From: a virus
IMG/VR virus record: IMGVR_UViG_3300020451_000755
Location: 1 to 27,155 of that record
Strand: one strand, 5' to 3'
Length of the DNA: 27,155 nucleotides
Shown: piece by piece, positions 1,515 through 17,781 of the stretch
How the letters are laid out: each line of letters starts with the position of its first letter
Numbering within the stretch: position 1 is the stretch's first letter
Translations under genes and position numbers: made by a program
The notes under the pieces: model-generated
What the model saw: only the letters and a program-made list of their open reading frames with translations
Told to the model about the DNA's origin: nothing
Databases searched by the model: none

Positions 1515-1524
1515 ATTGAGTATT

Positions 1525-1770: not shown

Positions 1771-1775
1771 AAAAA

Positions 1776-3865: not shown

Positions 3866-3878
3866 ATCAATTTATTAT

Positions 3879-3900: not shown

Positions 3901-3908
3901 ATACTTAA

Positions 3909-7531: not shown

Positions 7532-7593
7532 ATACTAAGGGCGAAACTCCAGTCATACCAAGGGATTCTACCGATGAACCTATCATTTTTTAT

Positions 7594-7896
7594 ACATTGT
7601 ACTTATAGGATGTACTTATTACTAATTTATAAGTACAAGTACATTGAGAATAGGTTTTGGTAAACTGTCTAAATAACTGGTTCTTTTAATTATACCATAA
7701 GTACAAGTACATTGCAAAAGGATGTTAAGTGTGTTATAATATGTGTATAAAGAAGAGAGAAAGTATTATGATTTAATGCTCAGATCTTATGTTGACTTAG
7801 CGAGCGTAGCATGAGACGCGGAGTTTGTCAACCCACGGATCGCGATTTCCTAACACACAGGGTCGCGAAGTACTTGTAGTCTTATAAGTACAATGT
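7594..7896. repeat. GTACAAGTAC-type repeats around a promoter
   Basis: ATAAGTACAAGTACATTG occurs twice in direct orientation, at 7629-7646 and 7697-7714 (68 bp apart). A shortened form ATAAGTACAATGT is at 7884-7896, and its inverse (ACATTGTACTTAT) is at 7594-7606. The second full copy ends inside the -35 element of the promoter at 7712-7740, so a regulator bound there would touch RNA polymerase. Confidence 0.7.
7712..7740 (+). promoter_or_regulatory. Sigma70-type promoter without an obvious gene
   Basis: TTGCAA (7712-7717), a 17-bp spacer and a perfect TATAAT (7735-7740). Transcription would start near 7747. The first downstream ATG with purine-rich leader (7769) meets a stop after two codons, and the next solid gene starts at 8704, so the transcript is probably non-coding or regulatory. 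Confidence 0.7.
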
Positions 7897-7946
7897 TACT
7901 ATATTGTAACAATAGATCCTTTTGCGTACATATATACTACTGTGAA

Positions 7947-8374
7947 TCTCGACGAGCTTGCGTCTAGTCGAGATATGTGCTATACTATAAGTATTCTATT
8001 CATCTCGACTATGTACGAAGACTGCGCAGACTGGTACGATCTCGACTATGAAACAGGTGACGATCTCGACGAGAGTACACAGTCTTATACACAAGACTTA
8101 GATCTCGACGAGGAATATAACTCTCGACGAGACAACAATCAGGATTTCTACGAGCTATCCATCTATCATTATGCATAATCTCGACGAGCTCGCACACATG
8201 AACGCATGCATCTAGACGAGCTTGCGCACATGTATCTCGACGAGCCTGCACATATCATACACACATATGAGCAGGGGCACACATCTCGACGAGGATACGC
8301 ATGTACTAGTAACATATGATACACATCGAGATTCATGCATGTAATACATTATACGACATGTGACGCATCGAGAT
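7947..8374. repeat. CTCGACGAG motif array
   Basis: CTCGACGAG or close variants start at 7948, 8004 (CTCGACTA), 8041 (CTCGACTA), 8065, 8104, 8123, 8180, 8212 (CTAGACGAG), 8236 and 8285. Inverted ATCGAGAT/GTCGAGAT forms lie at 7967-7974, 8325-8332 and 8367-8374. The core is a dyad, CTCG-A-CGAG. Spacing is irregular (19-57 bp) and the copies fall in all three reading frames, so the constraint is on DNA or RNA rather than protein. The array is more GC-rich than its surroundings. It looks like a cluster of protein-binding sites: an origin, partition-like site or operator array. Confidence 0.75.
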
Positions 8375-8703
8375 TGGCACAATGTGACAGTTTAAATTTT
8401 GGTTTTATATACATACCTTTGTATGGTTTGTTCGAGGAAGTGTAACATATTTTAAAGGGAAGGCAACAGCGAGTGTGCCAGTACGAGAATTGGATATCAG
8501 GAAAGGAACACAGAAATATTATAAGGCAGGGGGAGTGGCGAAGATTTTAGAGAGCGTACTTCCGCTCTTTTTTTGTTTATAAATTTATTATAAGAGAAAT
8601 CCAGCTCGAATGCATCAGCCAGTGTGCCAGAAATATTAGTGTCACATAGTATGACCAATTGCTACAGGAACTGATAAGATAAAGATACATACAAAAACAT
8701 CTC
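8375..8703. other. Non-coding stretch with terminator and leader
   Basis: Holds the terminator at 8551-8574, and AGTGTGCCAG at two places (about 8473-8482 and 8623-8632), which resembles the AGTGTCCACT half of the intergenic palindrome. A leader (8675-8697, GATAAGATAAAGATACATAC) resembles the cassette promoters but has a weak -10. A 25-codon GTG frame at 8475-8550 ending at the terminator is too short to call. Confidence 0.4.
8551..8574 (+). terminator. Strong intrinsic terminator
   Basis: AGAGCG (8551-8556), loop TACTTC, CGCTCT (8563-8568), then a T run to 8574. A textbook rho-independent terminator, isolating the accessory region from the small-gene region to its right. Confidence 0.9.
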
Positions 8704-8949
8704 ATGCACAATTTTCAGGAGTTCATCGATTATGTGTTTTCATTCTACGGGCAAGGTGGGTTGTATCCCCTCAACGTCTCTAAAGAGCAAATCGCATATG
8801 CAACGCTCAAATATCTTGATGACTGCAACGACCCGCTTGCTGAATTTAAGGTTACGTGGGGAGATGGAGATTCCCTTGATCGAGAAAGGGTAAGAGATTA
8901 TATGATGGACATGTATCATATCAGTTATGGATTGCCTATGCCAGTTTAG
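8704..8949 (+). CDS. Small cyanophage hypothetical protein
   Basis: An 81-aa protein, first gene of the small-gene region. The motifs FYGQGGLYPL (residues 14-23) and GDSLDRERVRD (about 55-65) look conserved and familiar from T4-like cyanophages, but no function is known to me. It is followed at once by cassette A, whose palindrome begins in its last codons (stop TAG 8947-8949). ATG 8704 is the only early start; no good Shine-Dalgarno precedes it. Confidence 0.7.
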   Translation: MHNFQEFIDYVFSFYGQGGLYPLNVSKEQIAYATLKYLDDCNDPLAEFKVTWGDGDSLDRERVRDYMMDMYHISYGLPMPV

Positions 8950-9017
8950 AAAGTGTCCACTAGTCCCCCGCAAGGGGGATTTTTTTGTCTATAATGAGTT
9001 TATACACGGAGATTTCT
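8941..9017 (+). promoter_or_regulatory. Intergenic cassette A: palindrome, terminator, promoter
   Basis: Palindrome-type sequence at 8941-8961 (half site AGTGTCCACT) containing the upstream stop codon. Then the hairpin CCCCC-GCAA-GGGGG (8965-8978) with a T run, TATAAT at 8990-8995, TATACAC at 9001-9007, GGAG at 9008-9011 and ATG 9018. Confidence 0.8.
8964..8986 (+). terminator. Intrinsic terminator in cassette A
   Basis: CCCCC (8965-8969), GCAA tetraloop, GGGGG (8974-8978), then a T-rich run to 8986, 4 nt before the -10 of the next promoter. Confidence 0.85.
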
Positions 9018-9155
9018 ATGAACTTCAAACTTACTGATGAGCAACTAGATCGCTTCAGTACTGCACTCGACAGAGCAATGGACTGTCCATTCATTCAAGA
9101 AGATGATGAAACTTGGGATGATCTTGCAGCGTTACAGGAAATCATTACGAGATGA
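9018..9155 (+). CDS. Small acidic hypothetical protein
   Basis: A 45-aa protein, rich in Asp and Glu and predicted helical. It is the first gene behind the cassette A promoter, with GGAG 6 nt before ATG 9018. Its stop overlaps the next start (ATGA, 9152-9155), so the two are translationally coupled. Function not recognised. The clear promoter, RBS and coupling make it more convincing than its length suggests. Confidence 0.65.
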   Translation: MNFKLTDEQLDRFSTALDRAMDCPFIQEDDETWDDLAALQEIITR

Positions 9156-9358
9156 AATTTAACGTAACAGAAATTGAGTTTGATTACGATGACGATTATG
9201 CCAACGGATTCAAACTCACATTCGATGAGGAAATCGAATTGCGGGATCTCGCACTCGGTGTTTGGGACGCGGATGATGAGGATGATCTCATCGAAGAAAT
9301 TACAGCATCAGCAGGATGGTGCATTAAATCTATTGACTACGAGGTACAACTTAAATGA
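9152..9358 (+). CDS. Very acidic small hypothetical protein
   Basis: A 68-aa protein with a strong negative charge: DYDDDY near residues 11-16 and DADDEDDLIEE near 39-49. Coupled to the preceding gene by ATGA overlap and to the following one by another 4-nt overlap. Acidic proteins of this size include DNA mimics that block host nucleases or DNA-binding proteins, but charge alone does not establish that role. Function not recognised. Confidence 0.65.
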   Translation: MKFNVTEIEFDYDDDYANGFKLTFDEEIELRDLALGVWDADDEDDLIEEITASAGWCIKSIDYEVQLK

Positions 9359-9579
9359 AAACTTATCAACAGGCAATGTACGACGAAATGCGTAAGAAAC
9401 CACGTAAAACAAAATATGAGATGTTTCAAGAATGGTTGAATGAATGTCCCGTGGAAATCACCAACTATAAAGATTACAGCGACGAGTTTGAAATTAACTT
9501 CTCGGTACCTCTAGAAGCAGGAGAAGAAAAACGGCTGACTAATTTTACATCATATGACACACCTGATGACATGTGGTAG
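9355..9579 (+). CDS. Small hypothetical protein
   Basis: A 74-aa protein with a basic N-terminus (residues 1-20) and acidic remainder, third in the 9018-9579 unit. It overlaps the upstream stop (ATGA) at 9355. Its stop TAG (9577-9579) lies at the start of a diverged cassette, as stops in this region usually do. No motif recognised. Confidence 0.6.
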   Translation: MKTYQQAMYDEMRKKPRKTKYEMFQEWLNECPVEITNYKDYSDEFEINFSVPLEAGEEKRLTNFTSYDTPDDMW

Positions 9580-9656
9580 ACACTTTAAATAGTGGCACAA
9601 CCTTCGTAGCATTCAGTGCGCGGGGACTTTATACTAGTATTACATACACAAATCTT
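9577..9656 (+). promoter_or_regulatory. Intergenic cassette B (diverged)
   Basis: TAGACACTTTAAATAGTGGC at 9577-9596 is a degraded version of TAGACAGTTAAATAAGTGTC in cassette I. CGGGGAC at 9621-9627 precedes TATACT (9630-9635) and TACATACACAAA, as in cassette D. No second hairpin is evident. ATG 9657 follows 21 nt after the -10. Confidence 0.6.
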
Positions 9657-10160
9657 ATGCAACAAGTAATTGGATCTAAAAATGATTTTATTATTGGAAA
9701 ATCAGTAAAGCAAACGGATCAAACGTTTCTTTTATCTTACGTAAAAGACTACTGCAGAGCAATTACTGAGAATTATCGCATCTACCACAAGAGGTCCTTA
9801 ACAAGAAATCTAGAGTTAGAGCGCGAAGATCTTTCAAGTTATGCGAAACAACAGTTAGACGCGATGGAAGACGGGACTGCGAATCTAATGAGATTTCGTT
9901 ATGAGGTAGGCAGGAAGTATTACAAAATCATTCAAGAAGAGTTCGACACTTTTCAAAATAGGAATGAGTATCGCGACGGTAGCGTTCATGCATTCGTAGG
10001 AAAGGATCCATCGATCCTAGGTAACGTATACAAACCCGCATCATGGAAGGCACCGCATACAAAACACGTTAGATTCTCATTTTGCGAACCAAAGGATCTA
10101 CAGAAATTATTAGATCCAAACTTCGTAGATTGGGCAGGAGGATATCTTTACTTAAGGTAG
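9657..10160 (+). CDS. Cyanophage-type hypothetical protein
   Basis: A 167-aa protein, helical and charged through residues 15-115 (RKYYKIIQEEF near 102-112). The C-terminal part has VHAFVGKD, YKPASWKAP and a final WAGGYLYLR. It reads like a widespread cyanophage protein of unknown function. The open frame begins at GTG 9573, but its first 28 codons coincide with cassette B (palindrome remnant, TATACT and leader), so ATG 9657 is the likely true start; it has no clear Shine-Dalgarno. The stop TAG lies at the first bases of cassette C. Confidence 0.7.
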   Translation: MQQVIGSKNDFIIGKSVKQTDQTFLLSYVKDYCRAITENYRIYHKRSLTRNLELEREDLSSYAKQQLDAMEDGTANLMRFRYEVGRKYYKIIQEEFDTFQNRNEYRDGSVHAFVGKDPSILGNVYKPASWKAPHTKHVRFSFCEPKDLQKLLDPNFVDWAGGYLYLR

Positions 10161-10240
10161 ACAGTTAAAAAAGTGTCCACTAGGGGGTTACATGACCCCC
10201 TTTTGCCTTTATAATAAGAACATACACAAACAGGGTTTTT
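10158..10240 (+). promoter_or_regulatory. Intergenic cassette C
   Basis: TAGACAGTT...AAGTGTCCACT at 10158-10181, starting with the upstream stop codon. Hairpin GGGGGT (10183-10188) / ACCCCC (10195-10200) followed by TTTT. TATAAT at 10210-10215, CATACACAAA, then ATG 10241. Confidence 0.8.
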
Positions 10241-10471
10241 ATGAAAAAATCTTCCAAAAGAATTTCAGATCTTGAAAAGGACATCTCTTACTGTATTGAT
10301 GTTCTAGGTCTCAACAATGAACAGATCGGAATGGTCTTTCGTTGTGCTGAAGAATTAGGGAACTTCTCAGTTCAATATTTCATGGAAGAATTCATATTCG
10401 ACATGGAACCAGAACAGTTGATGAACTATGCTGATCCAGAATACCTTAAGATTGACTGGAGGTTAAACTAA
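10241..10471 (+). CDS. Small hypothetical protein
   Basis: A 76-aa, mostly helical protein behind the cassette C promoter (25 nt from -10 to ATG). The N-terminal 12 residues are basic (KKSSKR) and the rest acidic. The stop overlaps the next ATG (TAATG at 10469-10473), coupling it to the Api92-like gene. No motif recognised. Confidence 0.65.
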   Translation: MKKSSKRISDLEKDISYCIDVLGLNNEQIGMVFRCAEELGNFSVQYFMEEFIFDMEPEQLMNYADPEYLKIDWRLN

Positions 10472-10935
10472 TGCCAAATTGGTGCAGTAACCGAGTAACA
10501 GTATCTGGTTGGGACGAAGAAAGTGTTCAAGAGATCAACGAGATCAGAGAAATTTTCTCTCAAGACAATCCATTCGCCAAGATCATTCCACCACCAGACT
10601 GGAAAACAATGCCAAATGAGAAGGGAGAATTACCATCTCTAAGGCAGGAATTCAATCAGGATGGCAAACTCATCTATGAATCCTATTACTTCCCAGATGG
10701 AAAAAATGATGACAGATGGTATGACTGGAATGTTCATAACTGGGGAACTAAGTGGGACATTGGTAAGGATGCAGTCGAATGGGGCGAAGATGAGGAGGAT
10801 TATTTCCAGATTCATTTCGACACAGCATGGGCTCCACCCGAAGACGTTGCCTCTGAACTGAAACGACAATATAAAAAAGTTTCGATCCAGTGGTTCTATG
10901 ATGAACCAGGATGTGAATCTGCAGGGTACTTATAG
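10471..10935 (+). CDS. Api92-like / ferredoxin-like fold protein
   Basis: A 154-aa protein with hallmarks of the phage and plasmid Api92/YubB-like family: MPNWCSNRVTVSG at the N-terminus, WNVHNWGTKWD near residues 89-99, and FDTAWAPP near 115-122, where small strands of a ferredoxin-like fold surround the invariant Trp residues. The biochemical role of this family is not established; it is common on phages and conjugative elements, where it may deal with host defence or DNA metabolism. It is coupled to the preceding gene. Its stop (10933-10935) sits at the first base of the cassette D palindrome. Confidence 0.82.
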   Translation: MPNWCSNRVTVSGWDEESVQEINEIREIFSQDNPFAKIIPPPDWKTMPNEKGELPSLRQEFNQDGKLIYESYYFPDGKNDDRWYDWNVHNWGTKWDIGKDAVEWGEDEEDYFQIHFDTAWAPPEDVASELKRQYKKVSIQWFYDEPGCESAGYL

Positions 10936-11017
10936 GACAGTTTAGAAAGTGTCCACTAAATCCCCATTCGTAAGAGTGGGGACTTATAATAATAGTATAC
11001 AAACAAAGGAGACCAAC
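10935..11017 (+). promoter_or_regulatory. Intergenic cassette D
   Basis: GGACAGTTTAGAAAGTGTCC at 10935-10954: 5 bp, a G-G mismatch, then 3 bp around a 2-nt centre. A 9-bp hairpin (TCCCCATTC 10961-10969 / GAGTGGGGA 10974-10982, loop GTAA) lacks a T run. TATAAT lies at 10985-10990, AAAGGAG before ATG 11018. Confidence 0.8.
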
Positions 11018-11167
11018 ATGAGTTGCCTAGCAAACGAAGAACTATTAGAAGGAATCTTTGAAGATCTACTATTACAGATCGAAGAAGCAGGATTAGATCC
11101 ACATTGCGAAGATGCTCAGTATGTTGCAGGAGTTCGTGCACAGCAAATAATGGAGGAAATGGCATAA
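11018..11167 (+). CDS. Small acidic hypothetical protein
   Basis: A 49-aa acidic, helical protein with an AAAGGAGA ribosome binding site. The reading frame is open further upstream, but only across the cassette D promoter, so ATG 11018 is the start. The next gene begins at the base after its stop. Residues 6-25 (NEELLEGIFEDLLLQ) form an amphipathic helix. Function not recognised. Confidence 0.65.
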   Translation: MSCLANEELLEGIFEDLLLQIEEAGLDPHCEDAQYVAGVRAQQIMEEMA

Positions 11168-11395
11168 ATGGCATATTGCGACAATTGCGGGAACTTCGAT
11201 GATGAACACACCGACGGAGAACCAGCCATTAAGGCATTGCCAGACTATCAACCGTCCCTTTACTATTACTGGGACGGTGATTTCTGTGAAGAGGACTACG
11301 ACTGGCGGGACGCATTACCAAACGCAGATTGCTTATGCGAAATCTGTTTTGATATTTTAAACACTGAGGGTAAACTTAAATGGACAAAGCCTTAA
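11168..11395 (+). CDS. Small protein with zinc-ribbon-like cysteines
   Basis: A 75-aa protein with C4-x2-C7 at the N-terminus and C57-x2-C60 near the C-terminus (also C40 and C55), the pairing expected for a zinc ribbon or knuckle. The intervening segment is Tyr/Asp/Trp-rich. Such small zinc proteins often bind nucleic acid or a host polymerase subunit, which here is inference only. It abuts the previous gene and overlaps the next by 16 nt, so it belongs to the 11018-11622 unit. Confidence 0.65.
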   Translation: MAYCDNCGNFDDEHTDGEPAIKALPDYQPSLYYYWDGDFCEEDYDWRDALPNADCLCEICFDILNTEGKLKWTKP

Positions 11396-11622
11396 TTAAT
11401 GAGCTCAAATCTTTCTTTGTTGAGAGATATGTTGATAACATGGACACTAAAGATTTAGTTGAGTATGTTTACAACGACATGGACAAATATGTTGATGGAC
11501 AAACTGACGATGAATTTCTAAATGATGCGAAGGATTACTGGGGGGATTACTTCGGGGAAGTTATTGATGAAGTCCAAGACTACATGAAATGCGACTTCAA
11601 AAAATCAAGAGTGGACAGTTAA
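11380..11622 (+). CDS. Small acidic protein, paralog family member 1
   Basis: An 80-aa protein. Residues 9-36 (ELKSFFVERYVDNMD, then DLVEYVYNDM) share a pattern with the genes at 12727 and 12969: a helix ending in [VI][ND/ED]DM or NM plus an acidic residue, then L-x(2)-[YW][VI]. This is a locally duplicated family; similar short proteins occur in cyanophages without known function. The stop TAA (11620-11622) lies in the loop of the cassette E palindrome, so the last codons are also regulatory DNA. Confidence 0.7.
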   Translation: MDKALINELKSFFVERYVDNMDTKDLVEYVYNDMDKYVDGQTDDEFLNDAKDYWGDYFGEVIDEVQDYMKCDFKKSRVDS

Positions 11623-11674
11623 ATAAGTGTCCACTTTTTATTGAAAACGACTCAAAATCGTTTATTATATAAGA
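11610..11674 (+). promoter_or_regulatory. Intergenic cassette E: palindrome-terminator and promoter
   Basis: AGTGGACA (11610-11617) / TGTCCACT (11628-11635) with the stop codon in the loop, followed by a T run to 11639: an intrinsic terminator in itself. A second hairpin AAACGA (11645-11650) / TCGTTT (11658-11663) follows. TATTAT (11663-11668) is the best -10, placing a start near 11675, where the structured RNA begins. Confidence 0.7.
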
Positions 11675-11840
11675 GTAGAGGGCAGAGATAGTGAAGAGGG
11701 AGACGCGAAGGTCAAGGAAGCGGGAAAACCGCACTGGTCATAACATCCATTCCAAAACTTCGTTAGTGCGCACTTAGTCCCACTCTTGAAATGTCGAGAT
11801 CGACCCCAGTAGTTAATTGCTCTGGTGCAAGTACCTCTAC
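11675..11840 (+). ncRNA. Candidate structured RNA or leader
   Basis: A set of fully nested complementary segments: GTAGAG 11675-11680 / CTCTAC 11835-11840; CAGAG 11683-11687 / CTCTG 11820-11824; 11694-11704 / 11777-11787 (9 of 11 paired); CGAAG 11706-11710 / CTTCG 11758-11762; GGAA 11716-11719 / TTCC 11750-11753; apical GCGG 11720-11723 / CCGC 11729-11732 with loop GAAAA. A side hairpin GTCG-AGAT-CGAC is at 11793-11804. The outer stem begins where transcription from cassette E would start and is followed by six T (11847-11852). It could be a stand-alone RNA or a cis-regulatory leader of the gene at 11862, which has no visible Shine-Dalgarno. No known RNA class recognised. Confidence 0.5.
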
Positions 11841-11861
11841 AATCCATTTTTTAAAAACATT

Positions 11862-12299
11862 ATGTCAACACGTTCACGAATTGGTTATGTATTACAAGAT
11901 GATTCCATTCTTTCTGTTTATCATCACTGGGATGGATATCCTGAATGGTTGGGTGTAACTCTTGAAGAGCACTACAACACAGATGAGAAAGTTCGCGAAC
12001 TTATCGACGGTGGCAGTATGTCTTCGTGCTATTCTACAACCAAGTATAACAAGGAAACCGAAGAGTTCGAGGATTGCGAAGGTCACGTTGAATATTATGG
12101 CGGGGAAGATGATGGACCAGTCCTATCAAAAAATCTTGATGAACTGGCACAAATTGACTGCGGTTCAGAATTCCTTTACATCTTCTTAAAAGGTAAATGG
12201 CATGCGTATGAAACAGACATCACACATGACGACGATTGGAAGATTACAGGAGTCTACACGAAACCCGTAGAAATCCCAAAGACAACTAGGACAGTTTAA
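11862..12299 (+). CDS. Phage hypothetical protein, SRIG/WDGYPE family
   Basis: A 145-aa protein starting MSTRSRIGYVL, with HHWDGYPEWLGVTLEEHY (about residues 21-38) and an LIDGGSMSS motif, a pattern I recognise from many phage proteins of unknown function. ATG 11862 is chosen over the open frame's earlier TTG (11817), because the motif-bearing domain starts here and the earlier codons lie within the RNA-like region. No Shine-Dalgarno precedes it (the 15 bases before ATG are T- then A-rich), so translation may depend on the upstream leader. The stop TAA lies in the loop of the cassette F palindrome. Confidence 0.75.
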   Translation: MSTRSRIGYVLQDDSILSVYHHWDGYPEWLGVTLEEHYNTDEKVRELIDGGSMSSCYSTTKYNKETEEFEDCEGHVEYYGGEDDGPVLSKNLDELAQIDCGSEFLYIFLKGKWHAYETDITHDDDWKITGVYTKPVEIPKTTRTV

Positions 12300-12368
12300 C
12301 AACTGTCCACTTTTTTCCCATTCGTATTTAATGGGTACTATAATTAAGACATACACAAGGGGTTCTAC
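12288..12368 (+). promoter_or_regulatory. Intergenic cassette F (perfect palindrome)
   Basis: GGACAGTTTAACAACTGTCC at 12289-12308 is a perfect 8-bp inverted repeat with loop TAAC (the stop codon), followed by six T (12311-12316). A second hairpin CCCATT 12317-12322 / AATGGG 12330-12335 follows, then TATAAT 12339-12344 and ATACACAAGGGG. Nearly identical to cassette H over about 45 nt. Confidence 0.85.
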
Positions 12369-12512
12369 ATGGACAACAAAAACAAAGATGTTCAAGGTTT
12401 ACTTGATCTCATCAAATTTGCAGAAGACTTCATCAAAGAAGAAGATGCAAAAGCAGATGCGTTAATCAAACAGATTAATGGAGAAGATGCGTTTTTATGG
12501 AGGAACTTCTAA
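12369..12512 (+). CDS. Small charged hypothetical protein
   Basis: A 47-aa, Lys/Asp/Glu-rich helical protein, first of a six-gene coupled unit (12369-13614) behind cassette F, with AAGGGG as ribosome binding site. Its stop overlaps the next ATG (TAATG, 12510-12514). No motif recognised; promoter, RBS and coupling support it. Confidence 0.65.
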   Translation: MDNKNKDVQGLLDLIKFAEDFIKEEDAKADALIKQINGEDAFLWRNF

Positions 12513-12730
12513 TGAAACCTTATGAACATGAGTTTTATGTAACTCGTAAATGTACCAAGATGGAGTACTTTACAGTTAAGGCAAGTAGTCTTGAAGAAGC
12601 CAAAGAGGAAGCAGAAAATGGTTGGGATTACTATGATTTTGATTGGGAAGAATTCGATTACGAAACCGTAAAGATCGAAGAGGAACAAATTCCACAGCAA
12701 CAATTAGTTCTAGAGGGGTTGGCGGTATGA
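12512..12730 (+). CDS. Small acidic hypothetical protein
   Basis: A 72-aa protein. Residues 5-35 read as strand-helix (FYVTRKCTKMEYFTVKASSLEEAKEEAENG), the pattern of a small alpha/beta fold; the second half is very acidic with many Trp, Tyr and Phe. ATG 12512 is preferred over ATG 12497: GGAGG (12499-12503) lies 8 nt before it and it overlaps the upstream stop. The end overlaps the next ATG by 4 nt. Function not recognised. Confidence 0.65.
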   Translation: MKPYEHEFYVTRKCTKMEYFTVKASSLEEAKEEAENGWDYYDFDWEEFDYETVKIEEEQIPQQQLVLEGLAV

Positions 12731-12972
12731 AGTTAGAACTGGTACAGTCCAAATATGATGAGTTGGTTCGTAGTTGGGTTAACGACTTCGTAGAAGATAT
12801 GGAAGTTAATCAACTCAGAGAATATGTAAGAGACAACCTACACCACAACCTTGAAAATATCAAAATTGTTGATGGGCAAGAGGGTGCATTCGGGGAAATG
12901 ATAGATTTCGGAGGAGAAGATTTCTTCGATGATAAATTAAAACCATTCAATTTAAAACTTTTAGAACTATGA
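12727..12972 (+). CDS. Small acidic protein, paralog family member 2
   Basis: An 81-aa protein with the shared family pattern in residues 8-40 (YDELVRSWVNDFVEDME, then QLREYVRDNL), compared with the genes at 11380 and 12969. ATGA overlap at its start (12727-12730) and 4-nt overlap at its end put it in a coupled unit. The C-terminal half is Gly/Asp/Phe-rich and differs between paralogs. Function unknown. Confidence 0.68.
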   Translation: MKLELVQSKYDELVRSWVNDFVEDMEVNQLREYVRDNLHHNLENIKIVDGQEGAFGEMIDFGGEDFFDDKLKPFNLKLLEL

Positions 12973-13244
12973 TCACATCATTATTTTCAGCAGAGCAAAT
13001 CCAAGACTTAAGGGAAGAATTCGTTGAATTTTATATCAACGATATGAACACCGAACAAATGGCAGATTGGATTCGTACAACTTATCTTGCCGAATTGAAC
13101 AGATGCACGGAGGATGAAATCAGAAATGAGATTGATGATTATGATGAAAACTTGTATGAATTTCTTGCACCTATGGTATTAGATCAAGAAGGTGCATATG
13201 AAGAACTACAAGAATTCATCCACGATAGGAGGGAGCAATTCTAA
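12969..13244 (+). CDS. Small acidic protein, paralog family member 3
   Basis: A 91-aa protein whose residues 11-45 (DLREEFVEFYINDMNTEQM, then ADWIRTTYL) match paralogs at 11380 and 12727. It lies immediately after member 2, the expected footprint of tandem duplication. Acidic, predicted helical, no membrane segment. The start overlaps the upstream stop by 4 nt and the stop overlaps the next ATG by one base. Function unknown. Confidence 0.68.
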   Translation: MITSLFSAEQIQDLREEFVEFYINDMNTEQMADWIRTTYLAELNRCTEDEIRNEIDDYDENLYEFLAPMVLDQEGAYEELQEFIHDRREQF

Positions 13245-13432
13245 TGACAAACTTAGAATCAGATGCTAGGGATGTTATGGAACAAATCCAAATGGCAGAG
13301 TCAAGGCATATGCAGATGGGTGCATTATGTTCCTACCTACTTCAATATCCTGACATGACAATTAGAGACTTTTTTGGTATGGCAGCGGCAGATATAGAAG
13401 AGGAAGCAGAAGAGTTGGGGTATTACGAATAA
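13244..13432 (+). CDS. Small acidic hypothetical protein
   Basis: A 62-aa protein, fifth in the 12369-13614 unit. TAATG overlaps at both ends (13244 and 13432) and an AGGAGGGAG ribosome binding site just upstream make it well supported. Met-rich helical centre (residues 18-32) and acidic C-terminus. No motif recognised. Confidence 0.66.
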   Translation: MTNLESDARDVMEQIQMAESRHMQMGALCSYLLQYPDMTIRDFFGMAAADIEEEAEELGYYE

Positions 13433-13614
13433 TGGAAAACTACTTAAACCTTTTTGAGCATATCCCCGAAGACGAGCATAATCACATTTCTAACAAGATT
13501 TGGGAAGCACTTGATCGAGCAGGGATTAAATTAAGCCAAGATGCGGAGTTAGCCGTTCGTATTTACGATGATAACTATGAAGGCGAATATGATGGCTCGG
13601 ATTATGACAGTTAA
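13432..13614 (+). CDS. Small acidic hypothetical protein
   Basis: A 60-aa protein, last of the unit. Residues 20-45 suggest a helix-strand pair; the tail (about 46-60) is almost all Asp, Glu, Tyr, Gly and Ser. The stop TAA (13612-13614) lies in the centre of the cassette G palindrome, so the C-terminal Asp-Ser codons are part of that element. Function not recognised. Confidence 0.64.
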   Translation: MENYLNLFEHIPEDEHNHISNKIWEALDRAGIKLSQDAELAVRIYDDNYEGEYDGSDYDS

Positions 13615-13668
13615 TTAAGTGTCACACACCCTCTACACAGAGGGTTTTTTATTCGTTATAATAAAGGT
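13606..13668 (+). promoter_or_regulatory. Intergenic cassette G with very short leader
   Basis: GACAGTTAATTAAGTGTC at 13606-13623 with the stop codon in its centre, then the terminator, then TATAAT at 13657-13662. The next ATG is at 13669, only 6 nt after the -10; all other cassettes have 21-37 nt. Transcription should start at or next to the A of ATG. Confidence 0.75.
13628..13650 (+). terminator. Intrinsic terminator in cassette G
   Basis: CCCTCT (13629-13634), ACAC loop, AGAGGG (13639-13644), six T (13645-13650). A clean rho-independent terminator ending the 12369-13614 unit. Confidence 0.9.
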
Positions 13669-14595
13669 ATGAAAAACACACACCTAGAACATCCAGAAGA
13701 CACAATCCTAACAGGGGATTTATCCGTGCTAGATTGGTTTACTGGTGGTGGGAACATCTCATTAAAATATGATGGTGCACCCGCAGTTGTATGGGGTAAT
13801 CATCCCAAGACTCACAGATTTTTCGTGGGTACTAAAAGCGTCTTTAACAAGGTCAAAATCAAGATCAATTACTCACACAAGGATATTGACGCAAATCACA
13901 CAGGAGAAGTTGCAAAGATTCTTCATGCGTGTTTCGACCACATACCACACCATCTAGGTTATATGGTTTTTCAGGGGGACTTTATTGGTTTTGGTGGTTC
14001 TGATGAATACAAACCTAATACCTTAACATATAAATTCCCTGACGTGGTAGATCAAAAGATCATTATTGCACCTCACACGCAGTACATCACCACACAGTGC
14101 ACAGACAATCTTGCAAATGCTGAAGCACACCCTATGAAATCTTTTCCATATTATTACAACTGGGAAAAGATGGACGACTGTTTATTCATCAGAGCAGAAG
14201 TCAAGGAGAGAGAAAACGATCCAATATCTAACTTAAAACCGTCTATTGATTTCATTAGACATATGGCGAAGGGGATCCAGTTCGTAGATAATAAAACCGC
14301 TAAAGAGTTAAAGAAACAAATAAATAAAGACTATAGGGAAGGGAAAGAAGTGGATCCCGTTAACTACGGGATTCATGGAAGGTTGATAAACTACTGGAAG
14401 TTAGTTCAAGAAACTAAAGCGGACGTTATGAGCAGATTAACTCACAGCGATCCAGTTCAAGCATACTTAGGTTATGACAAGCACATAGGCGAAGGATTCG
14501 TAATGACGAATAAATTCGGTATGCACAAATTAGTTTATAGACATATTTTCTCATACGCAAATTTTAATAGTGGTCGCTTTGTGCCAGTTGGTTAA
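13669..14595 (+). CDS. Putative covalent nucleotidyltransferase (ligase-motif protein)
   Basis: A 308-aa protein of a family common in cyanophages and usually annotated hypothetical. Several segments match the order of DNA/RNA ligase and capping-enzyme motifs: K33-Y-D35-G36 (motif I KxDG, candidate nucleotidyl lysine), FVGTKS (52-57), FQGDFIGFG (101-109, motif III-like), EGFVMTN (275-281, motif IV-like), HKLVY (286-290, weak motif V: KLV rather than KxK). Ligase or other nucleotidyl transfer activity is inference; the weak motif V and lack of an evident partner domain leave room for a non-catalytic relative. Its promoter lies so close to ATG 13669 that the mRNA would be leaderless; AAAGG is just 1-2 nt before the ATG. 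The stop is at the cassette H palindrome. Confidence 0.75.
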   Translation: MKNTHLEHPEDTILTGDLSVLDWFTGGGNISLKYDGAPAVVWGNHPKTHRFFVGTKSVFNKVKIKINYSHKDIDANHTGEVAKILHACFDHIPHHLGYMVFQGDFIGFGGSDEYKPNTLTYKFPDVVDQKIIIAPHTQYITTQCTDNLANAEAHPMKSFPYYYNWEKMDDCLFIRAEVKERENDPISNLKPSIDFIRHMAKGIQFVDNKTAKELKKQINKDYREGKEVDPVNYGIHGRLINYWKLVQETKADVMSRLTHSDPVQAYLGYDKHIGEGFVMTNKFGMHKLVYRHIFSYANFNSGRFVPVG

Positions 14596-14660
14596 AGTGT
14601 CCACTACTTTCCCATTCGTTGTTAATGGGTACTATAATTAAGACATACACACGGAGGCAA
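14584..14660 (+). promoter_or_regulatory. Intergenic cassette H
   Basis: Half-degraded palindrome CCAGTTGGTTAAAGTGTCC at 14584-14602 containing the stop codon. Hairpin CCCATT 14611-14616 / AATGGG 14624-14629; TATAAT 14633-14638; ACGGAGG ribosome site before ATG 14661. From TTTCCCATTCG through CATACACA it repeats cassette F almost exactly. Confidence 0.8.
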
Positions 14661-14945
14661 ATGCCAAAACCTGAAATTCATTACTCGCACTCTTTCGGAA
14701 TGGGATTCTGGATTGCTGAAGATGGACTTCTTATGAGTTGTCCCGCAATGGAAGATGCAGAAGGACGTACAACTATGGACGTTGAAAATGCGATTGCTGT
14801 TTCTGAATGGGACGATCCATCAGTTTACACACCCGACCATCTCTTAGCACTGGCAGACATTGCCCAGATATGCACCCTTAAAAGGGACTATGTAAATATC
14901 GGTTATTATGCCGAAAGATTCGGGAGGTCTTATGCAACCGCTTGA
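14661..14945 (+). CDS. Small hypothetical protein
   Basis: A 94-aa protein with a hydrophobic, Gly-rich N-terminal part (HSFGMGFWIAEDGLLMS, residues 9-25) and a helical second half around LLALADIAQICTL. No true membrane segment. ATG 14661 has CGGAGG 3-8 nt upstream; the frame extends to 14619, but only across the promoter. It overlaps the next gene by 14 nt. Function not recognised. Confidence 0.66.
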   Translation: MPKPEIHYSHSFGMGFWIAEDGLLMSCPAMEDAEGRTTMDVENAIAVSEWDDPSVYTPDHLLALADIAQICTLKRDYVNIGYYAERFGRSYATA

Positions 14946-15069
14946 TCCAGAAGTTTACGCAGAACTTCTTAAAGTCTATGAGGACAAAGATTACAATTTG
15001 ATCGTAGACTACAAAAATTACACATCTACATTCGTTCTTAAGGAGGAACCCAAAAATGACAGGAATTGA
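14932..15069 (+). CDS. Small hypothetical protein
   Basis: A 45-aa protein with GGGAGG 4-9 nt before ATG 14932, overlapping its neighbours on both sides by 14 nt. Predicted helix-strand-strand (residues 6-38). Small size is offset by the good ribosome site and coupling. No function recognised. Confidence 0.62.
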   Translation: MQPLDPEVYAELLKVYEDKDYNLIVDYKNYTSTFVLKEEPKNDRN

Positions 15070-15214
15070 ACTTTTAATATTAGTTGGCGGTTGCTATGCA
15101 TTATATACGGTAGGCATGGCAATTGCAACCGAACTTGACTATCGTCGTTTTAATCGTTCGGAGTTAAAAGAACTCAGAAGAAAGAATGATGAATTATTAG
15201 CAGGTCTCAAGTAG
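15056..15214 (+). CDS. Small single-pass membrane protein
   Basis: A 52-aa protein with one N-terminal hydrophobic segment (residues 4-24, ELLILVGGCYALYTVGMAIA) and a basic tail (DYRRFNRSELKELRRK), implying N-out/C-in by the positive-inside rule. AAGGAGG about 9 nt upstream is the best ribosome site in the region. Possible roles include holin-like, superinfection or envelope functions; none is supported directly. It ends at the cassette I palindrome. Confidence 0.72.
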   Translation: MTGIELLILVGGCYALYTVGMAIATELDYRRFNRSELKELRRKNDELLAGLK

Positions 15215-15295
15215 ACAGTTAAATAAGTGTCCACTCAACCCCCATTCACTGGGGGTTTTCTATTATAATAAACATATACACAAAAAGGAGCATCA
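15212..15295 (+). promoter_or_regulatory. Intergenic cassette I
   Basis: TAGACAGTTAAATAAGTGTC then CACT at 15212-15235, beginning with the stop codon. Terminator AACCCCC 15237-15243 / GGGGGTT 15251-15257 plus T's. TATAAT 15264-15269; ATATACACAAAAAGGAG before ATG 15296. Confidence 0.82.
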
Positions 15296-15514
15296 ATGCA
15301 ACTCACACCAATCGCATCAAACATGACCGAGGTTGAAACAAAAGAAGCAAGAATTTTGTTTTCATACCGCACACCTGTTGCTGCTTACATCTTCGGTGAA
15401 GGATTCGTAAAAACAGAGCAGTTTTGGTCAGTAACAACTTCACGCCATATCAACAAGTGGGGTGCTAGAGATGGAAAAGAAATTCCACAATCAAGACTGG
15501 ATTCACTGGTATGA
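15296..15514 (+). CDS. Small cyanophage hypothetical protein
   Basis: A 72-aa beta-rich protein with ILFSYRTPVAAY (residues 20-31), then WSVTTSRHINKW (44-55), a pattern familiar from many cyanophage small proteins without a known role. AAAAGGAG precedes ATG 15296. The stop overlaps the next start (ATGA at 15511-15514). Confidence 0.72.
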   Translation: MQLTPIASNMTEVETKEARILFSYRTPVAAYIFGEGFVKTEQFWSVTTSRHINKWGARDGKEIPQSRLDSLV

Positions 15515-15675
15515 GTTACACTAAAAACGAAATCGCTCTGGAGACTTTTCAGAGCGACATTAACAAACTTTTTTACTACATCGGTGAAGAAGGCGACCAA
15601 GTACCGTTTGAATCTCTCACACGATTTAACCGTTATTGTACAAACTTTATTAATTCTTTGGAGATTGAATCATGA
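15511..15675 (+). CDS. Small hypothetical protein
   Basis: A 54-aa, mostly helical protein with aromatic residues throughout (FQSDINKLFYYIG, FNRYCTNFINSL). ATGA overlaps at both ends (15511-15514 and 15672-15675) couple it to its neighbours. No strong ribosome site, consistent with re-initiation. Function not recognised. Confidence 0.63.
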   Translation: MSYTKNEIALETFQSDINKLFYYIGEEGDQVPFESLTRFNRYCTNFINSLEIES

Positions 15676-15854
15676 AATGGGAACGTGAATTGACAATGAC
15701 TGAAGCAGAGGAATCAGTCCTCGTAAAAATGGGACAATTTTTTATAGAGAATGGATGGGTTGACGCAGAATCAGAAAATGACTTTGACACACTGATTGAA
15801 AAAATATGCGAACCCGCACCATGGGATTATGTACCAAAACATGCTCTCAAGTAG
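15672..15854 (+). CDS. Small acidic hypothetical protein
   Basis: A 60-aa acidic protein, third in the unit behind cassette I. The stop is embedded in CTCAAGTAGACAGTTAA, the same 17 bases as at the end of the 15056 gene, so its C-terminal Leu-Lys and stop seem to have been copied with the cassette. No motif recognised. Confidence 0.63.
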   Translation: MKWERELTMTEAEESVLVKMGQFFIENGWVDAESENDFDTLIEKICEPAPWDYVPKHALK

Positions 15855-15937
15855 ACAGTTAACAAAGTGCACACTAAACCCCCTTTTCTGGGGGAATAGT
15901 GTTTATAATAGTAGTATAAACAAAAGGAGATCCATCC
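15852..15937 (+). promoter_or_regulatory. Intergenic cassette J
   Basis: TAGACAGTTAACAAAGTGCACACT at 15852-15875 (one half degraded: GTGCACACT for GTGTCCACT). Hairpin CCCCC 15879-15883 / GGGGG 15890-15894 without a T run. TATAAT 15904-15909, TATAAACAAAAGGAG, ATG 15938. Confidence 0.8.
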
Positions 15938-16228
15938 ATGAATCAAACAGAAAGACTAATCAACAGAATCAGAGAAGTAGACAACTTTAACGACGTAGCA
16001 GAATTATGCGAAGACTTCTCAACTTTCGTTGATGAGATTCAAGAATGGGGAGTACAAGCAATCGCCAAAGTTGAACTTTACTCTGGTAAAAGAATTGAGA
16101 AGAATGGCAGAATGGAATGGGAACTCAATCAGGATTTAGATTACAAACTACTTGATCAGTTTTTCAGTTCATTTGGTTACACTAAATCAAATCCACATCC
16201 CGCAGGAAACTACGCACACCTAAGATAG
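15938..16228 (+). CDS. Small hypothetical protein
   Basis: A 96-aa mixed-charge protein with a good AAAAGGAGA ribosome site, alone in its unit between cassettes J and K. It is helical at residues 3-40, then strand-rich through WELNQDLDYKLLDQFF. The C-terminus (HPAGNYAHLR) is polar. No family recognised. Confidence 0.68.
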   Translation: MNQTERLINRIREVDNFNDVAELCEDFSTFVDEIQEWGVQAIAKVELYSGKRIEKNGRMEWELNQDLDYKLLDQFFSSFGYTKSNPHPAGNYAHLR

Positions 16229-16233
16229 ACCAG

Positions 16234-16332
16234 TAGTGGACAGTCGAACAAACTGTCCACTATTTTCCCAAAAGAGACAAAAAATTGTTTATAATAGAAG
16301 TATAAACAAAGTTCAAAACAAATTTAAAAATT
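16234..16332 (+). promoter_or_regulatory. Intergenic cassette K (longest palindrome)
   Basis: TAGTGGACAGT (16234-16244) / ACTGTCCACTA (16252-16262), 11 bp perfect with loop CGAACAA, then TTTT: an intrinsic terminator. No second GC hairpin. TATAAT 16290-16295, TATAAACAAA leader, ATG 16333. Here the palindrome lies after the stop codon rather than over it. Confidence 0.85.
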
Positions 16333-16509
16333 ATGTTCATTCAAAAATTCATCGAAGTTCCAAACACAGATATTAAAGAAGAAGTTACAAACGACTTCGG
16401 ATTCGACCTATGTTACGACATGGCACAACAGTTCGGACATGCTCAGTTAGTCTGGTATGCTCTTAACGGTAATAGAGTTGTAGAAGGAGAATATACAGAC
16501 AAAGATTAA
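16333..16509 (+). CDS. Small hypothetical protein
   Basis: A 58-aa protein behind the cassette K promoter; no clear Shine-Dalgarno. It begins MFIQKFIEVP and is acidic overall, with aromatic and His residues in the middle (CYDMAQQFGHAQLVWYAL). Accepted because it fills the only space between a promoter and the next hairpin-promoter. Function not recognised. Confidence 0.58.
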   Translation: MFIQKFIEVPNTDIKEEVTNDFGFDLCYDMAQQFGHAQLVWYALNGNRVVEGEYTDKD

Positions 16510-16574
16510 TCTTCTTTGGGGGTTGTAAAATACCCCTTTATCCTTTATAATTGTACTATACACAAACAAACATT
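16510..16574 (+). promoter_or_regulatory. Intergenic hairpin-promoter L (no palindrome)
   Basis: Hairpin GGGGT 16519-16523 / ACCCC 16532-16536 followed by TTT, then TATAAT 16546-16551 and TATACACAAACAAA. The conserved palindrome is missing, so hairpin-promoter and palindrome are separable parts. Confidence 0.75.
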
Positions 16575-17003
16575 ATGATCTTTTCAGAAACCGAACAACT
16601 TGCAGTAGACACATTCGTTGAACTACAGGATCAGGTTAAAGCATTTGGTCTCCACAACTTTGAGAGAGAAGAGAGACTTTTATTCAAACAAGGAAGAGAA
16701 CTTTTGGAACAAGCAAAAAAACAAGCATCTCAGAAGAAAACACCATACACAGATATGGAAACAGAATGCTTATTAAATGCATACTTACTGAATCATGCAG
16801 ATATGGAGAAAGCAAGGACTGTTTTCTTTAGAGAGTTTCCAAACACTAAGCATAGCACCTCTTCAGTCTGGCAGAAGATCAGTAGAATCAGAACGTTAGA
16901 CAACCTATTTCCAGAGGATACAGAATGGGACACAGATCTACAGGTTAGAACCATGTGCGGAGAATACAACTACTACCACGGAGAGAAGAGGTTCGCAGTA
17001 TGA
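16575..17003 (+). CDS. Putative SANT/Myb-like DNA-binding protein
   Basis: A 142-aa protein. Residues 1-52 are helical and charged (coiled coil likely at 28-52). Residues 57-109 resemble a SANT/Myb-type three-helix unit: YTDMETECLLNAYL, then FFREFPN and SSVWQKISRIRTLD, with Trp 99 in the third helix. DNA binding is inferred from that pattern. ATG 16575 is preferred over an in-frame TTG at 16551, which overlaps the -10. It overlaps the next gene by 4 nt. Confidence 0.68.
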   Translation: MIFSETEQLAVDTFVELQDQVKAFGLHNFEREERLLFKQGRELLEQAKKQASQKKTPYTDMETECLLNAYLLNHADMEKARTVFFREFPNTKHSTSSVWQKISRIRTLDNLFPEDTEWDTDLQVRTMCGEYNYYHGEKRFAV

Positions 17004-17197
17004 GATTAATTATGGCAAGCGATCTCAAATCCAGAGATCGCAGGTGGGTTACATATTCCAACACTGGGACATATGTAAGCATCCAACCACACCTCCCCAC
17101 TGCTGAACTGGCAAACTATTGGAACCCATATTACACAGGCGAACCATTACCCCCATGCCCAGTATCAGGACACCCGCAGAGCACTAATTATTATTAG
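17000..17197 (+). CDS. Small Pro/Tyr-rich hypothetical protein
   Basis: A 65-aa protein starting in an ATGA overlap (17000-17003). The first half is basic with beta character (RRWVTYSNTGTYVS); the second is rich in Pro, Tyr and Asn (NPYYTGEPLPPCP). No motif recognised. It ends inside a 7-bp stem (GCACTAA 17181-17187 / TTAGTGC 17198-17204) without a T run. Confidence 0.6.
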   Translation: MRLIMASDLKSRDRRWVTYSNTGTYVSIQPHLPTAELANYWNPYYTGEPLPPCPVSGHPQSTNYY

Positions 17198-17282
17198 TTA
17201 GTGCAGTGGCAGTATGCCGACCCCGTATATAAAACGGGTAGGTACCGATAAGCTATAAACGACCCGATTCGAGAGGTAAATA
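17198..17282 (+). promoter_or_regulatory. Leader with hairpin and possible promoter
   Basis: CCCGT 17222-17226 / ACGGG 17234-17238 hairpin (loop ATATAAA), and TATAAA at 17254-17259, 23 nt before the TTG start at 17283. GAGAGGT at 17271-17277 is a fair ribosome site. Confidence 0.45.
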
Positions 17283-17519
17283 TTGAACGTTATACATAAA
17301 GTCAAAACCCATACGAAATCCAATACGATTTTTCATGATATGCAAAAAAATCCCGCAGAAAATTTTTCGCCTGTAGAGGTCGATCCCATAACTGGGAACT
17401 TCATGATTGATCTGCCTGAGTGGATGGTTAACGATATGGGGTGGTATGAGGGAACTATGCTACAATTAGACATATCCTCAGATAACGAATTAATCTTAAA
17501 AGAAAAAGAAGATGATTAA
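17283..17519 (+). CDS. AbrB/SpoVT-like DNA-binding protein
   Basis: A 78-aa protein whose residues 32-75 follow the AbrB/MazE swapped-hairpin pattern: VDPITGNFMIDLPEWMVNDM, G-W-Y-E-G, then a hydrophobic strand and ELILKEKE. These small dimers bind DNA as transition-state or antitoxin-type regulators. The start is TTG 17283, with GAGAGGT suitably placed; an in-frame ATG at 17340 would remove 19 basic residues and lacks a ribosome site. It overlaps the next gene by 8 nt. It lies about 210 bp upstream of the palindrome-bearing promoter at 17731, making it a candidate (unproven) regulator of that promoter. Confidence 0.72.
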   Translation: MNVIHKVKTHTKSNTIFHDMQKNPAENFSPVEVDPITGNFMIDLPEWMVNDMGWYEGTMLQLDISSDNELILKEKEDD

Positions 17520-17730
17520 AGAAACTGATACCATATATCATTTTTACGCAGGTAAGGATTGTATATTACATTCGGTAAAAGAAGAAGATTTCAAAGTTAC
17601 TTGGACTACACTTAAAGCAATGGTTGGTCTAATGCATACATCATATAAAGAAGAAGACCTATCATATACTAAGTTACCTGCACAAAAAATAGAGGTGGAA
17701 AACCCCTCTCTTGATGATCATTCATACTAA
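17512..17730 (+). CDS. Small hypothetical protein coupled to the AbrB-like gene
   Basis: A 72-aa protein overlapping the AbrB-like gene by 8 nt. The N-terminal half is strand-rich (IYHFYAGKDCILHSV), the middle helical (TLKAMVGLMH). No toxin or other family recognised; although the pairing superficially recalls antitoxin-toxin operons, nothing in this protein supports toxin activity. Its stop abuts the -35 of the glycosyltransferase promoter. Confidence 0.65.
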   Translation: MIKETDTIYHFYAGKDCILHSVKEEDFKVTWTTLKAMVGLMHTSYKEEDLSYTKLPAQKIEVENPSLDDHSY

Positions 17731-17759
17731 TTGACAACCACTATATAATAGTGTATGAT
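17731..17759 (+). promoter_or_regulatory. Near-consensus sigma70 promoter with spacer palindrome
   Basis: Perfect -35 TTGACA (17731-17736), 17-bp spacer, TATGAT (17754-17759). The spacer contains CACTAT-ATA-ATAGTG (17739-17753), a 6-bp inverted repeat placed where a repressor dimer would block polymerase. A TATAAT also occurs in the spacer but is too close to this -35. Drives the glycosyltransferase at 17782. Confidence 0.82.
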
Positions 17760-17781
17760 ATGAATGTAATTACAACACATT

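What the first reader, a model, noticed from the sequence alone, without database searches (positions are those of the whole stretch)
8941..16574. A family of intergenic palindrome-hairpin-promoter cassettes punctuates the small-gene region
Eleven gaps (8941, 9577, 10158, 10935, 11610, 12288, 13606, 14584, 15212, 15852, 16234) carry GGACAGTT..AA[G/C]TGTCCACT-type dyads, in ten of them at or over the stop codon, usually followed by a C/G-rich hairpin, TATAAT and a TATACACAAA-like leader. At 16510 the hairpin-promoter occurs without the dyad. This matches the logic of PeSL elements known from T4-type enterophages (RB49 and relatives) but with a different sequence. The dyad varies from a simple half site to an 11-bp perfect stem, some with T runs, so it may serve as a terminator, an operator, a recombination point, or all three.
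Basis: partly seen in the sequence, partly recalled or inferred. Interest (0 to 1): 0.85.

Follow-up and report, generated by a model that had tools for sequence, protein, structure and literature searches.

The report
Palindromic activator-type promoters in T4-like cyanophages
Viruses of ocean cyanobacteria put the same 24-letter palindrome at a fixed distance in front of many of their non-structural genes, which looks like the docking site of an unidentified protein that switches those genes on.

Summary
Eleven gaps carry the dyad; a twelfth promoter (16546) lacks it. In 11 of 11 the proximal half-site ends 27-29 nt before the -10 box. The dyad is a version of a wider element, TGTG[AC]CA[GC]TT-N4-AA[GC]TG[GT]CACA, centred 41.5 nt upstream of the -10 box (about -53). 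Pooled over ten cultured T4-like cyanophages, 88 half-sites have a -10 box in register against 13.3 at other offsets; T4 has 0, and HTVC008M, which infects Pelagibacter, shows no clear excess. No -35 consensus is seen and a purine start is implied. Stem pairing is not maintained and a T run follows 12 of 380 dyads, so the dyad is not mainly an RNA hairpin. The C/G hairpin between dyad and -10 box is a separate, optional terminator-like part (36% against 13% in shuffles). Best reading: an operator for a dimeric activator of non-structural genes. Host genomes show no clear excess and no binding protein was found. PeSL-like recombination has one comparison for and one against. Listings of ten paper searches showed no description of the element; the Syn9 transcriptome paper was not held.

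The parts
8936..9012 (+). Cassette 1: dyad GCCAGTT-TAGA-AAGTGTCCACT (8940-8961), C/G hairpin, -10 TATAAT 8990-8995
9575..9657 (+). Cassette 2: variant dyad GACACTT-TAAA-TAGTGGCACA (9579-9599), -10 TATACT 9630-9635
10156..10231 (+). Cassette 3: dyad 10160-10181, hairpin 10182-10201, -10 TATAAT 10210-10215, leader ATACACAAA
10932..11008 (+). Cassette 4: dyad 10936-10957, C/G-rich stem, -10 TATAAT 10985-10990
11610..11685 (+). Cassette 5: dyad AGTGGACAGTT-AAAT-AAGTGTCCACT (11610-11635), no C/G hairpin, -10 TATTAT 11663-11668, followed by a long non-coding leader
12286..12362 (+). Cassette 6: perfect palindrome GGACAGTT-TAAC-AACTGTCC (12289-12308, with ACT to 12311), -10 TATAAT 12339-12344
13602..13680 (+). 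Cassette 7: dyad GACAGTT-AATT-AAGTGTCACAC (13606-13627), hairpin 13628-13645, -10 TATAAT 13657-13662, before the DUF6267 gene
14580..14658 (+). Cassette 8: dyad with five central bases (14583-14605), weak hairpin, -10 TATAAT 14633-14638
15210..15286 (+). Cassette 9: dyad 15214-15235, hairpin 15237-15257, -10 TATAAT 15264-15269, leader ATACACAAA
15850..15926 (+). Cassette 10: dyad GACAGTT-AACA-AAGTGCACACT (15854-15875), hairpin 15879-15894, -10 TATAAT 15904-15909
16233..16310 (+). Cassette 11: dyad with five central bases (16233-16261), no C/G hairpin, -10 TATAAT 16290-16295
16510..16570 (+). Promoter without dyad: hairpin 16518-16537, -10 TATAAT 16546-16551, leader ATACACAAA

Best explanation
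Each cassette is a compact composite promoter. The palindrome TGTG[AC]CA[GC]TT-N4-AA[GC]TG[GT]CACA (here ..GACAGTT-N4-AASTGTCCACT) is a DNA binding site for a dimeric transcription factor. Bound about 41.5 bp upstream of the -10 box (centre near -53, proximal half-site about -51 to -42), the factor would recruit host sigma70-type RNA polymerase to a promoter with a TATAAT box, a purine start site 12 nt after its first T, and no -35 box. Where a C/G hairpin with a T run lies between operator and -10 box, it would end the incoming transcript just before the new one starts. The promoters serve non-structural genes: small ORFs, the CobT-like gene, CobS followed by gp45, gp44 and gp62, UvsW-like helicase, DUF6267. 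Shown here: the palindrome, its spacing, lack of -35, spread, and the genes next to it. Inferred: that it is bound as DNA, by a dimer, that the effect is activation, that gene clusters are operons, and early or middle timing. The factor is unknown: probably phage-encoded, less likely a host protein used by the phage.
For: Fixed spacing: of 124 distinct hits (IMG/VR stretches plus the window), a TATAAT (up to 1 mismatch) starts 27 nt after CCACT in 38 and 28 nt after in 45; no other offset exceeds 8. This set was fetched by the dyad pattern alone, so the -10 box was not selected. Ten cultured cyanophages pooled: 88 half-sites have a -10 box at 27-33 nt, against a summed mean of 13.3 in other 7-nt windows; T4 0. 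A consensus-free inverted-repeat scan of the ten pooled peaks at T1-41.5: 44 against mean 22.4, sd 5.7. Symmetry emerges unforced: with only the proximal half required, the distal half matches with up to 1 mismatch in 47 of 96 cultured (13 phages) and 199 of 284 non-seed IMG/VR promoters, against 1 of 288 and 1 of 852 at shifted positions. In 519 promoters there is no -35 consensus, and A or G stands at T1+12 (0.87 together), T at T1+13 (0.72). Read by eye, most orthologous CobT-like, CobS, UvsW-like and DUF6267 genes keep at least the proximal half-site at the same place. Spread: S-CRM01 17 and S-RSM4 10 dyads against 1 and 0 in the control; HTVC008M 0, RB49 0, KVP40 1 with control 3. Host-family chromosomes: 2 of 151 genomes match in each of two searches, one of the two being G011 through its cyanophage-like contig both times. 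Downstream genes: 0 of 32 with a P-SSM7 ortholog fall in its 47-122 kb stretch.
Against: No binding protein was found; among the core families examined none was a known DNA-binding regulator with the right distribution. No transcript data were available, so activation, repression and timing are not shown. Singly, the phages differ: P-SSM4 gives 3 half-sites in register against a mean of 1.3; S-RIM2 gives 2 full dyads against 2 in its control; T1-41.5 was the highest centre, alone or tied, in only four of ten phages. In one search some rows of MbCM1, P-HM2, S-PM2 and S-CAM7 show no site, partly because my ORF starts were wrong or the gene is split. S-TIM5 (3 against a control mean near 0.9) is unconvincing, and two other cyanobacterial phages, LMM01 and P-SSP7, have 0. 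The relaxed pattern gave 20 against 16 control matches in 61 host-family genomes, 7 of the 20 in one genome, G021, without a -10 box in the three copies read. Of 87 promoters, 23 had no ORF within 260 nt and 32 no P-SSM7 ortholog, so the gene classes rest on 32; one of these is psbA of P-SSM7 (recognised by eye). The 47-122 kb stretch is taken as structural from T4-type gene order; only its edges were seen annotated.
Confidence: 0.7

Rival explanations
1. The dyad is an operator for a repressor, so the promoters fire on entry and are shut off later.
For: Palindromic sites upstream of strong -10 boxes can be repressor sites; nothing here measures the sign of regulation.
Against: The centre near -53 does not cover the -10 box or start site, the spacing is held mostly to 27-29 nt as expected for contact with polymerase, and there is no -35 box to make the promoter strong without help.
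Confidence: 0.17
2. The dyad is an RNA stem at the 3' end of the preceding gene (terminator, processing or stability element); its place before the -10 box is a by-product of short gaps.
For: The preceding stop codon lies inside it in 46 of 70 cultured cases; a few copies are perfect stems with T runs, for example 12288.
Against: The variable stem pair is broken in 14 of 24 cultured and 42 of 71 non-seed IMG/VR full dyads, and a T run follows 12 of 380. The fixed distance to the -10 box has no reason under this reading. Where only one half is kept in the orthologous promoters read, it is the promoter-proximal one.
Confidence: 0.06
3. The cassettes are PeSL-like recombination units: their main role is homology for swapping genes, with promoter and terminator along for the ride.
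For: L076 has one extra dyad-promoter-gene module between two cassettes orthologous to those at 11614 and 12290.
Against: In the closest relative, L218 (97.5% and 97.7% identical in its two longest blocks, 93.5% in a third), the two gene differences (window 11168-11378 and 13254-13429) lie inside gene clusters away from dyads. Spacer sequences differ widely while spacing is kept, which argues for promoter function as the selected trait.
Confidence: 0.1
4. A host cyanobacterial regulator binds the dyad, and the phage has simply adopted its site, as reported for Pho boxes in cyanophages.
For: T4-like phages of cyanobacteria have dyads while HTVC008M, placed in the same family but infecting Pelagibacter, lacks them, and no matching phage regulator was found. 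Cyanobacteria supply 6 of the 11 strict matches among 84,980 species.
Against: Of the six cyanobacterial matches only the one on a cyanophage-like contig (L131) has a -10 box in register. Host-family genomes show no clear excess of dyad or composite. LMM01 and P-SSP7, also phages of cyanobacteria, have none.
Confidence: 0.25

Closest known systems
PeSLs (promoter-early stem-loops) of T4-type phages (Arbiol 2010, Comeau 2014; seen only as cited in PMC4503421, originals not held)
   Same: Compact terminator plus early-type promoter between small accessory genes in a variable region, repeated many times.
   Different: Here an upstream palindromic operator at fixed spacing is the conserved part and the stem-loop is optional. 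PMC4503421 (passages) found few PeSL-like items in the S-PM2 region studied and doubted they act there.
P2 Ogr / P4 delta dependent late promoters (TGT-N12-ACA; PMC3931495 passages)
   Same: Dyad upstream of the promoter, read by a phage activator; a dyad centre near -55 and a missing -35 are recalled, not looked up.
   Different: Different sequence and half-site distance (TGT-N18-ACA), different gene class, and no Ogr_Delta (PF04606) match in 14 phage records.
T4 middle promoters (MotA box with AsiA; recalled)
   Same: TATAAT-type -10 box without -35 consensus, helped by an upstream box.
   Different: The MotA box lies near -30 (recalled); here the box is a 24-bp palindrome near -53. Cyanomyoviruses are reported to lack motA and asi (PMC2984593 passages).
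NtcA and Pho-box promoters reported in cyanophages (PMC3037559 passages)
   Same: Upstream regulator site in a cyanophage promoter.
   Different: GTA-N8-TAC or CTTA-N7-CTTA does not fit the consensus.
Halovirus HF2 intergenic repeats that carry promoters (PMC8707807, search listing and start of abstract)
   Same: Repeated intergenic elements that are promoters in a tailed virus.
   Different: Halovirus, AT-rich motifs; no palindrome or spacing claim seen in the part of the abstract shown.

Membership tests
PeSL of T4-type phages | Promoter and stem-loop terminator joined in one intergenic unit | tested here: met
   Hairpin of -8 kcal/mol or better in the spacer in 35.8% of 380 promoters against 13.0% in shuffles and in 7 of 11 window cassettes. 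Met for those copies only; that they are early promoters was not tested.
PeSL of T4-type phages | Breakpoints of gene gain and loss at the units | tested here: inconclusive
   One extra module fits (L076), two missing genes do not (L218).
PeSL of T4-type phages | Sequence of the published PeSLs | not testable with these tools
   Defining papers not held.
Ogr/delta activated promoters | TGT-N12-ACA dyad | tested here: not met
   Outer TGT and ACA are 18 nt apart in the consensus.
Ogr/delta activated promoters | Ogr_Delta zinc-finger activator (PF04606) in the phage | tested here: not met
   0 of 14 phage records at E up to 1.
T4 MotA middle promoters | MotA box near -30 with TATAAT | tested here: not met
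   No strongly conserved letters between T1-29 and T1-1 in 519 promoters (at most 0.23 bits); box position of MotA recalled.
T4 MotA middle promoters | motA and asiA genes | not tested
   Reported absent from cyanomyoviruses in PMC2984593 (passages).
Intrinsic terminator (for the dyad itself) | Stable stem followed by a T run | tested here: not met
   12 of 380 dyads have 5 or more T in the next 8 nt; 18% fold at -8 kcal/mol or better. Single copies such as 12288 do meet it.
Sigma70 promoter with -35 box | TTGACA-like -35 hexamer 16-18 nt before -10 | tested here: not met
   No -35 consensus in 519 promoters; sigma70-type hits in window 7500-18500 equal shuffles, 34 against 33.6.

The most novel reading that the evidence does not exclude
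T4-like cyanophages have a promoter class of their own, fed by an undescribed dimeric activator that reads a 24-bp palindrome near -53 and takes the place of the MotA/AsiA middle switch and of T4 early promoter strength. It coordinates host takeover and replication genes across marine and freshwater cyanophages, and may be the missing early-to-middle control of this group.
Probability: 0.5. Interest if true: 0.85.

Novelty: new variant of a known kind. Interest (0 to 1): 0.72.

Why it matters
How early and middle transcription is controlled in T4-like cyanophages is described as unsettled in a 2010 review (PMC2984593, passages): they lack alt, modA, modB, motA and asi. A defined operator with fixed geometry, found in most cultured T4-like cyanophages tested here, gives a bait for finding the missing regulator and a rule for marking promoters and start sites in uncultured cyanophage genomes. 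Its absence from the Pelagibacter-infecting family member invites a test of whether the switch is tied to the host.

Tried and rejected
Rejected: RNA hairpin or terminator as the main role of the dyad (pair and T-run counts). Rejected as unsupported: host regulon; the one orthologous-looking host pair (L427, L432) lies inside a LysR-like gene, judged by eye from the L432 ORF. Rejected: Ogr-type activator. Regulator hunt without result: Pfam and PHROGs scans of 10 P-SSM7 core proteins and Pfam scans of 16 further proteins, core-family presence in 15 phages, CobS N-terminal region (looks helix-turn-helix-like to the eye; HTVC008M also has CobS). DUF6433 is also in HTVC008M and phrog_507 is missing from S-CAM7 and S-CRM01, so neither matches the distribution. 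Families not core to eight of ten phages were not searched for a regulator, apart from those. The first consensus-free palindrome scan used a strict threshold and showed nothing; one search repeated it with a looser one. Literature: ten searches listed no paper that I could see describes the element; (motif strings) matched 332 papers, of which 20 were listed. Doron 2016 (Syn9 transcriptome), Arbiol 2010 and Comeau 2014 were not held, and supplements could not be opened. No structure prediction was run.


Full report
What is there. The window is a 27,155-base IMG/VR record that reads as a fragment of a T4-like cyanophage (gp6-type baseplate wedge, DUF6267, 2OG oxygenases, tryptophan halogenase). 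In the window the strict pattern occurs 9 times forward against 0 for the reversed control. In 11 of 11 cassettes 27-29 nt separate the proximal half-site from the first T (T1) of the -10 box; T1+12 is a purine in 11 of 11 and T1+13 is T in 10 of 11.

It is a promoter element. Among 124 distinct hits (these stretches plus the window) a TATAAT-like hexamer starts 27 nt (38) or 28 nt (45) after CCACT, with at most 8 at any other offset, although the sequence in between differs widely.

Cultured phages. In ten T4-like cyanophages the degenerate dyad (up to 1 mismatch, both strands counted) occurs 180 times against 10 on reversed sequence, and 0 against 0 in T4; S-RIM2 alone gives no excess, 2 against 2. 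With only the proximal half-site required, 88 have a -10 box at 27-33 nt, against a summed mean of 13.3 for other windows of the same width; the weakest single phage is P-SSM4, 3 against 1.3, and T4 has 0. A palindrome scan that uses no consensus peaks, pooled over the ten, at T1-41.5 (44, mean 22.4, sd 5.7), with T1-42.5 second (38); singly, T1-41.5 is highest, alone or tied, in four of ten. Read by eye, most orthologous promoters of CobT-like, CobS, UvsW-like and DUF6267 genes show the element, or just its proximal half, at the same place; some rows of MbCM1, P-HM2, S-PM2 and S-CAM7 show none, partly because of wrong ORF starts or split genes.

It behaves as a symmetric DNA site. When only the proximal half is required, the distal half reappears: 47 of 96 cultured (13 phages) and 199 of 284 non-seed IMG/VR promoters match with up to 1 mismatch, against 1 of 288 and 1 of 852 at shifted positions. 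The variable pair of the would-be stem is broken in 14 of 24 and 42 of 71 full dyads, and a T run follows 12 of 380. This fits a dimeric protein on DNA better than an RNA stem. A few copies, such as 12288, could still fold and terminate.

Layout of the promoter. In 519 non-redundant promoters (93 cultured; many of the rest are seed sites) there is no -35 consensus. The dyad centre is then near -53 and the proximal half-site at about -51 to -42. Between dyad and -10 box a hairpin of -8 kcal/mol or better occurs in 35.8% of 380 promoters against 13.0% of shuffles, so the terminator-like part is separate and optional. The preceding stop codon lies inside the dyad in 46 of 70 measurable cases, which I read as economy of space.

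Genes served. In P-SSM7 the sites lie before small ORFs (1.6, 33.5 and 39-45 kb), the CobT-like peptidase, CobS (followed by gp45, gp44 and, further on, gp62 and regA), DUF6267 and psbA, the last recognised by eye. Of 87 promoters in ten phages, 32 have a downstream gene with a P-SSM7 ortholog and 0 of these lie in its 47-122 kb stretch, which I take as structural from T4-type gene order (only its edges were seen annotated); 32 have no such ortholog and 23 no ORF within 260 nt. Early or middle timing is therefore an inference. The P-HM2 transcript paper (passages) gives three classes, but its gene table is in a supplement that could not be opened.

Spread. S-CRM01 (freshwater) 17 and S-RSM4 10 dyads; S-TIM5 3; HTVC008M, RB49, LMM01 and P-SSP7 0; KVP40 1 with control 3. 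HTVC008M is placed in the same family but infects Pelagibacter; its half-site count in register (2) is like its controls (0 to 3). Host chromosomes show no clear use of the element: 2 of 151 host-family genomes match in each of two searches, one of the two being G011 through its cyanophage-like contig both times; the relaxed pattern gives 20 against 16 control matches in 61 genomes, 7 of the 20 in one genome (G021), whose three copies read have no -10 box in register. Among 84,980 species 11 stretches match the strict dyad, six of them cyanobacterial. By eye only L131, whose ORFs look like cyanophage genes, and L133, a small metagenome contig not examined further, have a -10 box in register. 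The cyanobacterial bias of the other matches is unexplained.

The factor. No regulator was identified. Among the core families examined none is a known DNA-binding regulator with the right distribution; DUF6433 is in HTVC008M too and phrog_507 is missing from two dyad-bearing phages. No Ogr_Delta protein was found in 14 records. A non-core or fast-evolving phage protein or a hijacked host protein remain possible.

Recombination. L076 carries an extra dyad-promoter-gene module between two shared cassettes. L218, 97.5-97.7% identical in its two longest blocks and 93.5% in a third, lacks two genes inside clusters. One case each way leaves PeSL-like shuffling open.

Novelty. The listings of ten paper searches showed no description of the element (one search listed 20 of 332). 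Review and genome papers speak of sigma70-like early and NATAAATA late promoters and of an unresolved middle mode, with a putative middle promoter reported in P-SSM4 and Syn9 whose sequence I did not see (PMC2984593, PMC3037559, passages). A motif search upstream of cyanomyovirus psbA reported -35 and -10 motifs (PMC5931967, passages). The Syn9 transcriptome paper was not held and may contain part of this.

Noticed in passing
window 11669-11862: After cassette 5 lies a non-coding leader of about 190 nt before the gene starting at 11862. Leaders beginning like GAGTGGAGGGG follow dyad promoters in several other contigs (L094, L107, L269, L330, L337); in L107 the start is mirrored by CCCTCCACT downstream. 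The fold of the window copy is only slightly better than shuffles (z -1.44); no Rfam match at gathering threshold.
   Followed up: partly
window 11168-11378 and 13254-13429: Two small genes present here are absent from the close relative L218; both differences lie inside gene clusters, not at dyads.
   Followed up: partly
L029 record (243,166 bases, handle G003): The most dyad matches of the 21 records: 40 forward with up to 2 mismatches against 0 forward control matches.
   Followed up: no
L331, L290, L295: Several dyads close together, many about 58 bp apart, on two IMG/VR contigs.
   Followed up: no
L127 and L130 (Prochloron contig), L129, L126, L134: Strict dyad matches in cyanobacterial genomes without a -10 box in register; the two Prochloron copies lie about 5 kb apart on one 16.9-kb contig and share upstream flanking sequence. 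Possibly a mobile element end.
   Followed up: no
window 7946-8319: Four to five short direct repeats (ATCTCGACGAGC..) close together just before the small-gene region.
   Followed up: no
window 624-5843: Tryptophan halogenase gene with three 2OG-Fe(II) oxygenase genes around it.
   Followed up: no
CobS of P-SSM7 and relatives: The N-terminal part of phage CobS, itself behind a dyad promoter, looks helix-turn-helix-like by eye.
   Followed up: partly
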